Of a stretch of DNA of 64,000 nt, positions 3,633 to 12,827 are shown in pieces. A program made the position numbers and the translations under genes. Source of the stretch: Bacteroidota bacterium. Lineage in GTDB: Bacteria; Bacteroidota; Rhodothermia; Rhodothermales; UBA10348. The notes below the pieces were generated by a model. That model was not told the DNA's origin and did no database searches. It saw only the letters and a list, made by a program, of their open reading frames with translations. Numbering within the stretch: the stretch's first letter is position 1; each line of letters starts with the position of its first letter. Location of the stretch: assembly GCA_029262835.1 (NCBI GenBank), contig JAJCYQ010000031.1, forward strand, positions 1 to 64,000, in the 5' to 3' direction.

Positions 3633-4784
3633 CTATTTTTTGAAGTCCACCAGGAGCGAAAACCGCATGGTGTTGGACAGTGGGGAGTCCTCTTCAAGCG
3701 CATAGATGTAGGAGAAATCGACACCGATGATGTTAACGCGGACACCAGCACCCAGCGTAAGGAACTTCCGGTTGCCATTGTTCGGGTTCTCGTAGAAATA
3801 CCCGGAACGCAGGGCGAACTGACTGTTGTACCAGTATTCAATGCCGGTTCCAATGGTCATCTGGTCCAGCACGGACAAGGTCTCAAACTCCGCCTCGTCC
3901 TCAGACAGTGAGTTGGTCTGAACCTTGACCGACTTCCACGAAGAGAAAATAGCCTCGTAGAACGGGTCAGCCTCCCGGTCAGCACCTTCACCCGAGAAGG
4001 ACACCATGTCCTTGTTGAAGTCCGTAACGAGCGTCAACGAGTTGAACTCGTCAAAATCGACCTTGAAGGCATACCCGAGCCGGAGGTTCGTCGGAATGGG
4101 ATCGGCCTGGGCATTGTCCGAATAGCTGATTTTAGACCCCATGTTGGCCAGGTTGAAACCAAGCGACAGCGTGCCCTTCGCCTCGCCACCGAGGCCAAAC
4201 TGGCCGCTGCGATACAGACCGGCCACGTCGAACGCCGTCGCCACACCGGCTTTCGTCTGCTCCGCACCAATGGTCTGACCGGGTGCCAGGTTTGAGTAGA
4301 TGAACCGCAGGCTCGTACCAATGCCGAAGCGCTCTGTGACCTTGACGCCATAGGAAAGCCCCGTGGCCAGGTCATAGGACCGGAACGTTCCCGTAGGATT
4401 GTTCTGGTCGTCACGCCCGTCGTGTTCACCAAGAAACAGGTACGTCAGGTGCCCACCGAACGTACCAATACCCGGTACGTGGTGCTTCGCCGTGAGGTAC
4501 TCGTAAAAGAGCCCTGCATTGAACTCCGGCAGCCAGTTCGAGTGCGTGATTGCGGCTTCGGTGCCCGTCTGGAAGGCCAGTCCGGCCGGATTCCAGAAAA
4601 TGGCACTGGCATTGTCGGCGAGTGCGACACCCGCGTTACCCATGCCAGCCGCACGGCTGTCCGGCTCGATTTTCAAAAATACAACAGCGGATGTACCCGC
4701 CTGGCCTTGCGCCGACGACGGCATCATGGCGACTGCCACCAGGACAGCACATGCGATCACAATCCGGTTGAACCCCGTTTTCAT
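3633..4784 (-). CDS. porV: Type IX secretion system outer-membrane protein PorV (PorV/PorQ family)
   Basis: A 383-residue outer-membrane beta-barrel protein with a cleavable signal peptide (cleavage probably after SSAQGQA, about residue 28). The stretch FLKIEPDSRAAGMGNAGVA followed by NASAIFWNPAGLA is the hallmark N-terminus of PorV/PorQ (FadL-like, UPF0164). In T9SS, PorV shuttles cargo from the translocon to the sortase PorU. The gene directly follows porU, an arrangement common in Bacteroidota. The protein ends in SLLVDFKK, a plausible last strand. PorQ is the main alternative, but linkage to porU favours PorV. Confidence 0.9.
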   Translation of the reverse strand: MKTGFNRIVIACAVLVAVAMMPSSAQGQAGTSAVVFLKIEPDSRAAGMGNAGVALADNASAIFWNPAGLAFQTGTEAAITHSNWLPEFNAGLFYEYLTAKHHVPGIGTFGGHLTYLFLGEHDGRDDQNNPTGTFRSYDLATGLSYGVKVTERFGIGTSLRFIYSNLAPGQTIGAEQTKAGVATAFDVAGLYRSGQFGLGGEAKGTLSLGFNLANMGSKISYSDNAQADPIPTNLRLGYAFKVDFDEFNSLTLVTDFNKDMVSFSGEGADREADPFYEAIFSSWKSVKVQTNSLSEDEAEFETLSVLDQMTIGTGIEYWYNSQFALRSGYFYENPNNGNRKFLTLGAGVRVNIIGVDFSYIYALEEDSPLSNTMRFSLLVDFKK

Positions 4785-8944: not shown

Positions 8945-9217
8945 TCAATCCACTTTCGATTCCAGTTCGGAAAGCAGGCCGCGAACCACGAGCAGGCGGT
9001 CAATCGAGTCGCCAAGTCCGTTGACGGCCTCGAGCATGTCGGTGAGCGGTTCGCTCAGTTCGTCTTCCATGCCGAGGGCCGCGACCAGTTCCTGCAGCAG
9101 CTCTACATTGCCCGAGAGCACCGACAGCGGATTGTTCACGTCGTGGTGAATGCGCGAGAGCAGGCCGCGCACTTCGGCAATGGCCTGTTTGAGCTCGGAT
9201 GACGTCTGTACATTCAT
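8945..9217 (-). CDS. Orphan histidine-phosphotransfer (HisKA/DHp-like) domain protein
   Basis: A 90-residue, almost wholly helical protein with no membrane segment. Residues 24-42 read HHDVNNPLSVLSGNVELLQ, matching the H-box of histidine kinase dimerisation domains, with His25 as the predicted phospho-acceptor. A second helix (about 50-85) would complete a DHp hairpin. There is no ATP-binding domain (no N, G1 or G2 box) here or in the next frames. The gene sits 35 bases after a membrane sensor gene, so the two probably form one system. A phosphotransferase or docking role is inference. Confidence 0.7.
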   Translation of the reverse strand: MNVQTSSELKQAIAEVRGLLSRIHHDVNNPLSVLSGNVELLQELVAALGMEDELSEPLTDMLEAVNGLGDSIDRLLVVRGLLSELESKVD

Positions 9218-9252
9218 GGTGTACCTGCTTTCATGGCGACGTTAAATCGCTG

Positions 9253-10665
9253 TCAGATGATGGGTTCCGCAGATGCTTTCTTTTCGGGCTCGACGGCCCA
9301 CAAAAAGCCTGCCTCGCGCCCCCGGAAAAGAATTTCGGAGGCCTGCCACGTGAGAGGCCCCACCAGCGCGCGACCCATCCGGAGCGAGAGCGGAATACTC
9401 GTCTCGTCGGGTCGCTCCTGCAGCCAGGAGGCAAACGCGTCGCGGTCGCTCTCCGACACCAGGCACTCTTCCCGGAATGACCTGAGGTCAGTCGCCTCCA
9501 GCCCCGCCGTCTGGAAAAGAAAGCGTCCTTCTTCGTCAAATACAATGGCGTGTACTCCCGCGGCGCGCAGGATATCGACAAATCCGTCGCCATCGGGCTG
9601 TTCCAGGTCGACCGGCTCGGACAGGCAGGCCATGACGGCAGCCCTCCCATTCCAGGCTACAGGCTGTAGTGACAGCATCCTGTTTCCGTCGACCGCGACC
9701 TGCTCCACACCGGCCCCGGCGCCCCGAGTACGCCGCATCCACCGGCGGATTGGGGCCGTTGGAAACACGTCGTCAAGCGCCGCGAGCGATTCCGGGAAGG
9801 GTGCGCCCTGGCGGGCATCCATGACGCGGCGCCCTACAGCCAGCACAGACTCGTCTCCTGCGAGAACGACAACATGACCCGGCAGCCCATCGAGAATGGA
9901 CTGCAGACGTTTCTCGAGGTCGCGTACGCGGGTCGTGCCGAGCGTGACCTGTCTGATCACGTCGATAACGCTCGTAGCGTGCCCCCCAAGCCGGGGCACG
10001 AGTCGCGCCTCCAGTCGGTCAAGAGACGACGACGACAATTCTTCCCGCCGAAGCGCTGCGTGCAGCGCACGGTCGAGCTCCTTGAGTGGAGCGTGAAGCC
10101 CTCGACGTACGACAACGAACACAAGTGTCACGCAAACGAACCACATCAGAAGACCGACGCCGGGCAGAATCAGCCATATATACGGCAACGAACCACTGGT
10201 GCTCTTCGCGTCAGCCACGGCAATGACCCAGCGGCCGAGCGATGCGTCGTGCCGGGTAATGAGTGCCATGTCGGCGGCTCCGTAGCGTACGCGCCGCGCC
10301 TGGAAGCCGTCTGTTGCCTCAAGGGTCTGGTTCCACCACCAGGCGTCAAGCGGCTTGCCGACATCTGCCCGGAGCGACGAGGCCAACACGCCCCCCGTCG
10401 CATCGACCACCCATATACGCTCAAAGCCGCTGCTTGCGGCGAGTTCTGCAAGTTGCGGCCGGGTCCCCGTAATCATGTCATGGGAATGGAAAATGGCATC
10501 GACGGTCGCGCGCTCCATGGACCACTCGTTCAATTCAAGGCCGCGTTGCAGCTGCCAGGCCAGACCCGAAGCAACGAGCAGCACAATGGCCGTGCCGGGA
10601 AGTATCCATTTCAGAACGGCGTGTCTCAGAGAGAGACCGGTTTCGAGGGCAAACGTACTATTCAC
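9253..10665 (-). CDS. Membrane sensor protein with extracytoplasmic domain, no kinase domain
   Basis: A 470-residue protein with a GTG start. It has a membrane helix at about residues 18-38, a periplasmic sensory region (about 40-150) containing IWVVDATGGVLASS, and a second membrane helix (about 152-176). The cytoplasmic region has a HAMP-like or coiled-coil stretch (about 180-250) and then two PAS-like segments (about 255-360 and 370-465). No histidine kinase, diguanylate cyclase or methyl-accepting signature is visible. It looks like the front half of a sensor kinase, and the following gene supplies a lone DHp domain. Confidence 0.65.
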   Translation of the reverse strand: MNSTFALETGLSLRHAVLKWILPGTAIVLLVASGLAWQLQRGLELNEWSMERATVDAIFHSHDMITGTRPQLAELAASSGFERIWVVDATGGVLASSLRADVGKPLDAWWWNQTLEATDGFQARRVRYGAADMALITRHDASLGRWVIAVADAKSTSGSLPYIWLILPGVGLLMWFVCVTLVFVVVRRGLHAPLKELDRALHAALRREELSSSSLDRLEARLVPRLGGHATSVIDVIRQVTLGTTRVRDLEKRLQSILDGLPGHVVVLAGDESVLAVGRRVMDARQGAPFPESLAALDDVFPTAPIRRWMRRTRGAGAGVEQVAVDGNRMLSLQPVAWNGRAAVMACLSEPVDLEQPDGDGFVDILRAAGVHAIVFDEEGRFLFQTAGLEATDLRSFREECLVSESDRDAFASWLQERPDETSIPLSLRMGRALVGPLTWQASEILFRGREAGFLWAVEPEKKASAEPII

Positions 10666-10750: not shown

Positions 10751-11392
10751 TCAGAGCGTATCGCCGGGCAGCGGGAAATCCGGGAAGTGGCCGTTCGACG
10801 TGATTTTGCGGCGCAGTTCTTCTGCTTCTTCAACGGCTGGAATGAACGCCTCCAGATGGCCGACGAGGTAGTGGATCCGCTGCGCCTCGTCCCGCATTTC
10901 AAGCAGCATCTGGCGCTGCTCGACCGACAGCCCCGCATTGCGGCCCACGAAGTAGGAAAGTCGGCGGCGATCCTGGTATGAACTGGGGGATGGAATGCGC
11001 CCGGCCAGCTCGAGCAGTTTGATATGCTGCGCCACGAGGCGTTCGCGCTCCTCCTCGTTGACCACGGGCGGTGTATCGGCGAGCACATCCACATCTGCCG
11101 TCCGGTAGAGCCGGTTGCCGTAGAGCTGCGCAATACGGAAGCGCTCCTCCCCGACCACGATGATGTCGCTCGACCCGTCGGCGTGCGTCTCCACCATGTC
11201 CTTGATGCGCGCCGTACAGCCCACGTCCTCAAGCCGGCTGTTGGCGTAGCGAACGACGCCGAACGGCATATCCTCGCTCACGCAGTCTTCCAGGAGCTTG
11301 CGATAGCGATCTTCGAAAATATGCAGGGGCATGCCCTCGTCCGGAAAAAGGACAATATCGAGTGGAAAAAGTGGGAGGCCTGTGAGCGGCAT
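10751..11392 (-). CDS. Lon protease substrate-binding (LonN) domain protein
   Basis: A 213-residue protein covering only the N-terminal substrate-binding domain of Lon. It opens LPLFPLDIVLFPDEGMPLHIFEDRY, the typical LonN start (LPLFPL then PLHIFExRY), and continues with VVGEERFRI. There is no AAA or protease domain, as usual for this stand-alone family (PF02190). Its cellular role is not established; peptide or substrate recognition is inferred from Lon. It is the first gene of the long minus-strand block and is divergent from the outer-membrane protein gene at 11439. Confidence 0.88.
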   Translation of the reverse strand: MPLTGLPLFPLDIVLFPDEGMPLHIFEDRYRKLLEDCVSEDMPFGVVRYANSRLEDVGCTARIKDMVETHADGSSDIIVVGEERFRIAQLYGNRLYRTADVDVLADTPPVVNEEERERLVAQHIKLLELAGRIPSPSSYQDRRRLSYFVGRNAGLSVEQRQMLLEMRDEAQRIHYLVGHLEAFIPAVEEAEELRRKITSNGHFPDFPLPGDTL

Positions 11393-11438: not shown

Positions 11439-12827
11439 ATGATGCGTCTGAATCCGGTTGCCAGCACGCGGACTGCCGTCCGCGTCCTCACGGGCCTGCT
11501 GCTTGTGGCCTGCGGGGCACTGCCGGGCGCGGCCCAGATACATACGTTCGGATCGCTCGATGATCCCGCCGAATACAATGCACTGGCCTGGTGGGATACG
11601 GAGGCCCAAATTACGACATACGGCGGGTTTTCCCTCATGGGCCCACAGTGGCGGACCGCCACGCGCCTCTCGGCGCAGGTCAAACGCTCGCAGGCCAGCC
11701 TCCGGATCGATGCCGGCGCGAGGACGGGCATCTACGGAACCTTTGATGAGGACTTTGACGAGTGGCGCGATGCGCTGCGCATTATTGATCACGCCCGGTG
11801 GACACCGCGCGGTTCGGCCACGTACCTCCGGCTGGGCCCCCTGGACCGGGGGCGGCTTGGCGACGGCCATCTCGTCAACTTTTTTTCCACGCAGAACGCG
11901 TGGGATACGCGGTCGGCGGGAGTCGAGGCGTCGTTTGGCGCGCGCACTGTGCAGACGCAGATCCTGGTCGAAGACATTACGCAGTCCCGCCTGTTTGCCG
12001 GCCGCATAGCCATGCGGCCATTTGCGGCTCTCTCTTCGCGGCTTTCCACCCTCTGGATCGCGGGCTCGGCGCTGACCGACCGCTCGGCGACGGGCCGGGC
12101 CGGAGAGCCGCTCGTGGCCTGGTCGGCGGACGCCCGCATGACGGCCTTCGAAGCGGGCTCGTTTTCGTTCGAACCGTTTGCGTCGGTCGCGCAGATCCAG
12201 ACCATGGGCCGGGGCGTCCTCGTGGGAGCGGACCTGGTGAATGAGAACTTCATTGACATGGCCAGGCTGCAGTTCCGCCTGGCCCTCCACTTCAATGGGG
12301 CCGCCTTCCAGCCCGGTTATTTCGGCAGTTTCTACACCGTCCGCAGCCGCCGCGCGAACCTGATTGCCGACCCCGAAGCCGCCGCCGGAGGCATAGTCCT
12401 GCCCGGCGATGACAACGAGTTCCTGGCGGGCGTCCCCATTGAATTCGTATTCCGTGACAACTCGGTCTGGACCGAGCTGCGCATCCACTTTTTTCAGCGG
12501 TTCGAGCTCTGGTACCAGTTCCTGCGCCATCACGGCGTGCAGGATCTGAGCGAATACCACCTGCGCCTGTTCCTGCGCCTGGAACGGATGGAGTTGTCCG
12601 TGGGTCAGGACCGCGCTGGACTGGACGGCTTTTTCTCGCTTTTCAGCGCCGCAGGCGACGAAAACGCGCTCGTGTTCGACTTCACCTACAATATCCGCGG
12701 CGCGCTCTGGGCCCGGACCGAAGCCCGCTACACGTTCGTTCCGTCCGGCCTGGGGCCCGGCGGCCGCGAGCAGTTCGTGGTCCAACGCCGCTTCGAACCC
12801 CTCCTGGGGCTGCGGTTTGGTTTCTAA
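11439..12827 (+). CDS. Predicted outer-membrane beta-barrel protein, function unknown
   Basis: A 462-residue exported protein with a signal peptide ending near GALPGAAQ (about residue 33). The rest alternates polar and aromatic residues in strand-like segments, with many Arg/Tyr/Phe positions, and ends LLGLRFGF, a terminal phenylalanine typical of outer-membrane barrels. I do not recognise the family. It stands alone on the plus strand between two minus-strand blocks, with only 27 bases to the convergent nadA stop. ATG at 11442 is an equally good start. Confidence 0.65.
   Translation: MMRLNPVASTRTAVRVLTGLLLVACGALPGAAQIHTFGSLDDPAEYNALAWWDTEAQITTYGGFSLMGPQWRTATRLSAQVKRSQASLRIDAGARTGIYGTFDEDFDEWRDALRIIDHARWTPRGSATYLRLGPLDRGRLGDGHLVNFFSTQNAWDTRSAGVEASFGARTVQTQILVEDITQSRLFAGRIAMRPFAALSSRLSTLWIAGSALTDRSATGRAGEPLVAWSADARMTAFEAGSFSFEPFASVAQIQTMGRGVLVGADLVNENFIDMARLQFRLALHFNGAAFQPGYFGSFYTVRSRRANLIADPEAAAGGIVLPGDDNEFLAGVPIEFVFRDNSVWTELRIHFFQRFELWYQFLRHHGVQDLSEYHLRLFLRLERMELSVGQDRAGLDGFFSLFSAAGDENALVFDFTYNIRGALWARTEARYTFVPSGLGPGGREQFVVQRRFEPLLGLRFGF

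What the first reader, a model, noticed from the sequence alone, without database searches (positions are those of the whole stretch)
8945..10665. Split sensor: membrane sensor plus orphan DHp protein, no ATPase domain
The 470-residue sensor has two membrane helices, an exposed domain and PAS-like cytoplasmic segments but no kinase core. The next gene, 35 bases away, encodes only a DHp-like hairpin with HHDVNNPL. Together they look like a histidine kinase that has lost its HATPase domain, or a phosphotransfer/docking module that borrows phosphate from another kinase, reminiscent of Spo0B/ChpT-like logic. They sit directly upstream of porU.
Basis: partly seen in the sequence, partly recalled or inferred. 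Interest (0 to 1): 0.65.

Follow-up and report, generated by a model that had tools for sequence, protein, structure and literature searches.

The report
Kinase remnant: sensor plus lone phospho-histidine hairpin
Two neighbouring genes encode a membrane sensor with no enzyme part and a tiny 90-residue protein that is only the phosphate-accepting hairpin of a bacterial kinase; relatives show how a complete two-protein signalling system shrank step by step to this stable remnant, which probably moves or removes phosphate on a regulator protein that is not yet identified.

Summary
The window encodes a TM-Cache-TM-PAS-PAS sensor with no kinase core (9253-10665, minus strand). After a 35-base gap comes a 90-aa HisKA/DHp hairpin (8945-9217) with H25, D26 and N29, then porU and porV. 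It is not a local frameshift. The hairpin is a single-copy gene in 85 of 114 genomes of the order; none of the 85 aligned homologues has room for an ATPase domain. The phospho-His is kept in 84/85 and the phosphatase-type Asn in 82/85; the kinase-type acid next to the His is lost in 14. dN/dS between close relatives is about 0.05-0.10.

In two families (f5, f16) the homologous sensor is a complete histidine kinase followed by a receiver-DHp protein without ATPase. In f12 the sensor lost its core and the receiver decayed; in the window's family only sensor plus bare DHp remain. A tree separates this DHp from the sensors' own HisKA. So it is the partner's domain, not the sensor's.

Most likely it is a stand-alone phosphatase/phosphotransfer module acting on a receiver elsewhere. 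PorX is a candidate, untested. Adjacency to porU is weak evidence, since the same gene block exists without the DHp.

The parts
9253..10665 (-). Non-catalytic membrane sensor, 470 aa: TM - Cache-like periplasmic domain - TM - helical linker - PAS - PAS, stop; no HisKA, no HATPase
10195..10485 (-). Periplasmic Cache-like alpha/beta domain (aa 61-157)
   Evidence: AlphaFold2 secondary structure; a sub-threshold dCache_1 hit in relative L067; DctB among fold matches
9619..9876 (-). PAS domain 1 (aa 264-349)
   Evidence: model; PAS Pfam hits in relatives; fold matches to PAS proteins
9292..9588 (-). PAS domain 2 (aa 360-458), followed by 12 residues and stop
8945..9217 (-). DHp-only protein, 90 aa, two-helix hairpin (aa 6-48 and 51-88)
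   Evidence: HisKA 7.2e-8; structure; 85 homologues
9143..9145 (-). Codon of His25, the phospho-acceptor position; kept in 84 of 85 homologues
9140..9142 (-). Codon of Asp26 (+1 acid, required for kinase activity in HisKA kinases); D/E in 71 of 85 homologues
   Evidence: role from PMC3510030
9131..9133 (-). Codon of Asn29 (+4, phosphatase position); Asn in 82 of 85 homologues
   Evidence: role from PMC3510030
4869..8876 (-). porU, T9SS sortase, 68 bases downstream of the DHp gene (neighbour)
   Evidence: NF033707, 2.6e-285
3633..4784 (-). porV (neighbour)
   Evidence: NF033710, 4.7e-90
10751..11392 (-). LON substrate-binding-domain protein, upstream neighbour of the conserved block
   Evidence: PF02190, 1.2e-28; synteny

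Best explanation
SHOWN BY SEQUENCE: The 90-aa protein is the surviving DHp domain of a receiver-DHp partner protein that once worked with a full PAS-histidine kinase. In the window's family the kinase lost its catalytic core (keeping TM-Cache-TM-PAS-PAS) and the partner lost its receiver. The hairpin is under strong purifying selection and keeps the phospho-His and the phosphatase-type Asn. INFERRED: It cannot autophosphorylate. It works as a small, presumably homodimeric module that docks the receiver of some response regulator and dephosphorylates it (as isolated EnvZ and NtrB DHp domains do) and/or accepts and passes its phosphoryl group (Spo0B/ChpT-like logic). The upstream sensor, where present, probably gates it without covalent linkage. 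The target receiver is unknown; PorX, encoded elsewhere in this genome, is one candidate.
For: HisKA match above cut-off; hairpin model. Present in 85/114 genomes of the order, one copy per genome except one fragmented assembly. At most 29 aa follow the DHp in any of the 85 aligned homologues, so none has an ATPase domain. H25 84/85, N29 82/85, G36 85/85, but the +1 acid only 71/85, lost in several families. dN/dS 0.05-0.10 among the window and two sisters, similar to porU. Series: full HK + canonical receiver-DHp in f16 and f5; core-less sensor + decayed receiver-DHp in f12; core-less sensor + DHp only in f1. Tree: window DHp groups with receiver-DHp partners, while the f5/f16 sensors' HisKA groups with ordinary kinases. 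The DHp persists where the sensor is absent (G008, G014). Literature: EnvZ and NtrB DHp alone suffices for phosphatase activity in vivo; +1 E/D is needed only for kinase, +4 T/N only for phosphatase activity (PMC3510030).
Against: No biochemical data and no identified receiver partner. His is not strictly needed for phosphatase activity, so its near-invariance points towards phosphotransfer; the two activities cannot be separated here. One homologue (G328) has Glu in place of His. Adjacency of sensor and DHp does not prove interaction. The sensor's PAS2 is followed by only 12 residues, without a signalling helix. The deepest forks of the tree have modest support (89/77).
Confidence: 0.58

Rival explanations
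1. Split histidine kinase: a CA (ATPase) domain supplied by another protein phosphorylates the DHp in trans, as in CheA3/CheA4 or the artificially split EnvZ.
For: DHp and CA of EnvZ remain active when split, and CheA3/CheA4 is a natural case (PMC3591291). The genome has dozens of HATPase-containing genes.
Against: No small CA-only gene was found near the locus or among the genome's HATPase hits that I inspected, apart from two RsbW-like genes and a HATPase fragment at a contig end. The +1 acid needed for kinase activity is lost in 14 of 85 homologues across several families.
Confidence: 0.12
2. Phosphorelay hub: the DHp takes phosphate from one receiver and gives it to another (Spo0F-Spo0B-Spo0A logic), its original receiver having been fused to it in f5, f16 and some f13 genomes. 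This is a sub-case of the best explanation, in which phosphotransfer rather than phosphatase activity is the function.
For: Near-invariant His; ancestral receiver-DHp fusion next to a full kinase, an arrangement like LvrA-LvrB minus the CA domain (PMC13269768).
Against: No terminal regulator is linked to it; the fused receiver has decayed or vanished in most lineages while the DHp stayed.
Confidence: 0.3
3. Dedicated T9SS regulator: the sensor and DHp control PorX phosphorylation, i.e. they replace a PorY-type kinase.
For: porU and/or porV lies downstream within 2 kb in 70 of 85 genomes; PorX is encoded in the genome (NF052313, 3.2e-208) and PglZ-domain genes of PorX size occur in nearly all 60 relatives searched.
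Against: The LON-MBL-porU-porV block exists without the DHp in f4 and f15; f3 has the DHp away from porU; most f13 genomes lost porU but kept the DHp; in f16 and f5 the receiver-DHp is not next to por genes; PglZ/PorX-like genes are also present where the DHp is absent.
Confidence: 0.2
4. Degenerate pseudogene-like remnants without function.
For: Progressive loss of domains across families.
Against: Open, essentially single-copy and strongly conserved in 13 family-level groups; dN/dS 0.05-0.10.
Confidence: 0.03

Closest known systems
Isolated DHp domain of EnvZ or NtrB (laboratory fragments)
   Same: A DHp hairpin without CA, with an H-[ED]-x-x-[NT]-P motif; the fragment alone has phosphatase activity (PMC3510030)
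   Different: Here it is a natural gene, conserved for its own sake, detached from the sensor and descended from a receiver-DHp partner
LvrA-LvrB of Leptospira (Rec-controlled histidine kinase)
   Same: f5/f16 arrangement: an upstream kinase plus a receiver-DHp protein; the f16 receiver-DHp matches the LvrB model over REC and DHp (9e-20, well below that model's cut-off)
   Different: LvrB has a CA domain and autophosphorylates (PMC13269768); these have no CA, and the window copy has no receiver either
Spo0B / ChpT phosphotransferases
   Same: A CA-independent DHp-type phospho-His module
   Different: Those have a second, degenerate CA-like domain; the window protein ends right after helix 2. 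Sequence similarity to Spo0B is only marginal (PDB 1f51, E=0.13, motif region)
CheA3/CheA4 split kinase of Rhodobacter sphaeroides
   Same: Phospho-His separated from catalysis
   Different: CheA P1/Hpt chemistry with a dedicated CA partner; none was found here
HisKA proteins lacking HATPase in databases (of 42,417 HisKA proteins, 1,556 lack HATPase and 711 of these carry the phosphatase motif, PMC3591291)
   Same: Same formal category
   Different: The category is a count; here a lineage-wide family, its origin and its residue pattern are described

Membership tests
HisKA / DHp domain | HMM match and invariant phospho-His in the first helix | tested here: met
   PF00512 7.2e-8 above cut-off; His in 84/85 homologues
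HisKA / DHp domain | Two-helix hairpin | tested here: met
   AlphaFold2 H6-48, H51-88, pLDDT 89.5
HisKA / DHp domain | Homodimer forming a four-helix bundle | not testable with these tools
   No complex prediction available; monomer model only
Histidine kinase | HATPase/CA domain in the same protein | tested here: not met
   Absent in sensor and DHp; at most 29 aa after the DHp in 85 homologues
Spo0B / ChpT histidine phosphotransferase | Degenerate CA-like second domain | tested here: not met
   Protein ends at aa 90 after helix 2
Spo0B / ChpT histidine phosphotransferase | Phosphotransfer between receivers | not testable with these tools
   Needs biochemistry
Split histidine kinase | Dedicated CA-only partner | tested here: inconclusive
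   None found near the locus; two RsbW-like genes and one contig-end HATPase fragment among HATPase hits inspected; not all 43 hits examined in detail
Rec-controlled kinase (LvrB type) | REC-DHp-CA architecture | tested here: not met
   REC and DHp without CA in f5/f16; DHp only in the window
PorX/PorY T9SS two-component system | Sensor is a PorY kinase acting on PorX | tested here: not met
   Sensor has no kinase core; PorX itself is present elsewhere; PorY was not searched for
Phosphatase-competent HisKA | Asn/Thr at +4 from the His | tested here: met
   Asn in 82/85 and Thr in one; role from PMC3510030

The most novel reading that the evidence does not exclude
A natural, lineage-wide, DHp-only protein class: the phospho-His hairpin of a two-component system has outlived kinase, receiver and often sensor, and now acts alone as a sensor-gated trans phosphatase/phosphotransfer unit on the T9SS regulator PorX.
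Probability: 0.15. Interest if true: 0.8.

Novelty: new variant of a known kind. Interest (0 to 1): 0.52.

Why it matters
CA-less HisKA proteins are counted in databases, but none of the papers found here describes a natural stepwise series. Here homologous loci show full kinase plus receiver-DHp, core-less sensor plus receiver-DHp, core-less sensor plus DHp, and DHp alone, with the hairpin the part that persists. That makes two questions testable: what the minimal DHp does without a kinase, and whether bare DHp domains are natural receiver phosphatases. If the target is PorX, it would also give a regulatory input for type IX secretion in this order, where no PorY-type input was identified here (it was not searched for).

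Tried and rejected
Local frameshift or assembly error: rejected, the same state occurs in sister genomes and across family f1, with conserved ends. DHp as the sensor's own severed domain: rejected by f5/f16 (sensor has its own HisKA) and by the tree. Hidden CA domain in the sensor C-terminus: rejected by the structure model. Adjacent CA-only gene: not found. Promoter/terminator scan: uninformative (no sigma-70 promoter-like site; terminator-like matches 4 against 2.0 expected), and such consensus scans do not cover Bacteroidota promoters. Two first regex controls for HisKA residues failed and were redone: recognisable HisKA domains of the genome's other kinases nearly all have E/D at +1. PDB fold search with the bare hairpin has no E below 0.33, as expected for a two-helix protein. 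Literature on the M. tuberculosis three-protein split system (Rv0600c-Rv0602c) was not found in usable form, so it is not used as evidence. Co-evolution with PorX was not attempted: too few independent pairs. PorY was not searched for in the genome.

Full report
OBSERVATION. The sensor (9253-10665, minus) has no Pfam domain above cut-off in the window copy. Its relatives have two PAS domains, and its model is TM - alpha/beta periplasmic domain - TM - helix - PAS - PAS, ending 12 residues after PAS2 (pLDDT 74, low pTM, so domain packing is not reliable). The best fold matches are multi-PAS proteins and the WalK-YycH integrative model. The 90-aa protein is a true HisKA domain (7.2e-8, above cut-off) modelled as a two-helix hairpin.

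NOT AN ACCIDENT. Two close relatives carry both genes at 72-78% (sensor) and 87-90% (DHp) identity. dN/dS between the window and these two is 0.05-0.08 for the DHp, 0.12-0.16 for the sensor and 0.05-0.07 for porU. Among 114 genomes of the order, 85 have the DHp, single copy apart from one fragmented assembly with two hits. In 247 genomes drawn from the phylum, strong hits in short frames occur only in this order and one sister family of the class, f16.

ANATOMY ACROSS RELATIVES. I extracted the locus from 83 genomes of the order plus two of f16. No homologue has more than 29 residues after the DHp, so a CA domain is absent everywhere. The receiver-like N-terminal part is canonical in f16 and f5 (Pfam Response_reg 2e-20 and 5e-17), partly decayed in f12 and some f13 genomes, strongly decayed in f3, f7 and f8, and gone in f1, f2 and most f13 (the grading of decay is by eye on the alignment). 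The sensor homologue is a complete kinase in f16 (766 aa, HisKA 2e-15, HATPase 3e-31) and f5 (HATPase 1.3e-20; the f5 gene is spread over two contigs that share the same coding stretch). It lacks the kinase core in f12 and f1, and is absent elsewhere. In f1 the DHp persists even where the sensor is missing (G008, G014). So the DHp is the part that stays.

ORIGIN. In a tree of DHp/HisKA domains, the window protein falls with the receiver-DHp partners (derived group 96/97), while the f5/f16 sensors' own HisKA domains fall among ordinary kinases (few columns, root by midpoint, deep split 89/77). The DHp is therefore most likely the partner's output domain, not a piece of the sensor kinase. The direction of change (full system first, remnant later) is inferred from the tree, the placement of f16 outside the order and the decay of the receiver. 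The nearest named architecture of the presumed ancestor is LvrA-LvrB of Leptospira, minus the CA domain of LvrB (PMC13269768).

MECHANISM. In HisKA proteins the acid next to the His is needed only for kinase activity and the T/N at +4 only for phosphatase activity, and the DHp of EnvZ or NtrB alone suffices for phosphatase activity in vivo (PMC3510030). In this family the His is kept in 84/85, the +4 Asn in 82/85, and the acid in 71/85, with losses to A, S, N, R or G in several families. Recognisable HisKA domains of other kinases in the same genome nearly all keep E/D at +1. This pattern fits phosphatase and/or phosphotransfer use without autokinase activity. The near-invariance of the His, which helps but is not essential for phosphatase activity, favours at least some phosphotransfer. 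Which receiver it serves is unknown.

T9SS LINK. porU and/or porV follows within 2 kb in 70 of 85 genomes, some others being at contig ends, and PorX is encoded in the genome (NF052313, 3.2e-208). But the LON-MBL-porU-porV block also exists without the DHp (f4, f15), f3 keeps the DHp away from porU, and most f13 genomes lost porU yet kept the DHp. Gene order is therefore only weak evidence for a T9SS role.

COMPARISON. It works like a bare DHp fragment. It is not a histidine kinase, not a Spo0B/ChpT member (no second domain), not an LvrB-type kinase and not PorY. HisKA proteins without HATPase are known as a category: 1,556 of 42,417, of which 711 carry the phosphatase motif (PMC3591291). This is a new, evolutionarily explained variant of that category.

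Noticed in passing
f13 loci, e.g. L078, L202-L226: Most Salinibacter-like (f13) genomes lack porU next to the DHp but keep porV there; one (G315, L208) still has porU.
   Followed up: partly
L073:6723-7733, L081:8277-9287 and f12 loci: A TPR protein with a C-terminal helix-turn-helix-like end sits between the DHp and porU in f9 and f12.
   Followed up: no
L174:5828-6448 and L176:5495-6076: Another CA-less DHp protein, with likely membrane helices and an H-[RE]-INNPLAIILGYTRL motif, next to a tadA-like gene in family f40.
   Followed up: no
L175:6066-6794: Receiver-DHp protein without CA next to an HSP70-like gene in a distant Bacteroidota genome (G186).
   Followed up: no
L221 (G328): The only one of 85 DHp homologues in which the phospho-His is replaced, by Glu.
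   Followed up: no
L133:4012-4770 (own genome): HATPase protein with Arg directly after the putative phospho-His (LRHRIGSLVSG), followed by an NtrC-like regulator.
   Followed up: no
window 11439-12827 (+): Conserved opposite-strand neighbour of the block across the order, without any Pfam match.
   Followed up: no
L072:8671-9525 and others: Metallo-beta-lactamase-fold hydrolase (nearest NCBIfam model YtnP-family lactonase, below cut-off) occupies the sensor's place in most other families.
   Followed up: partly
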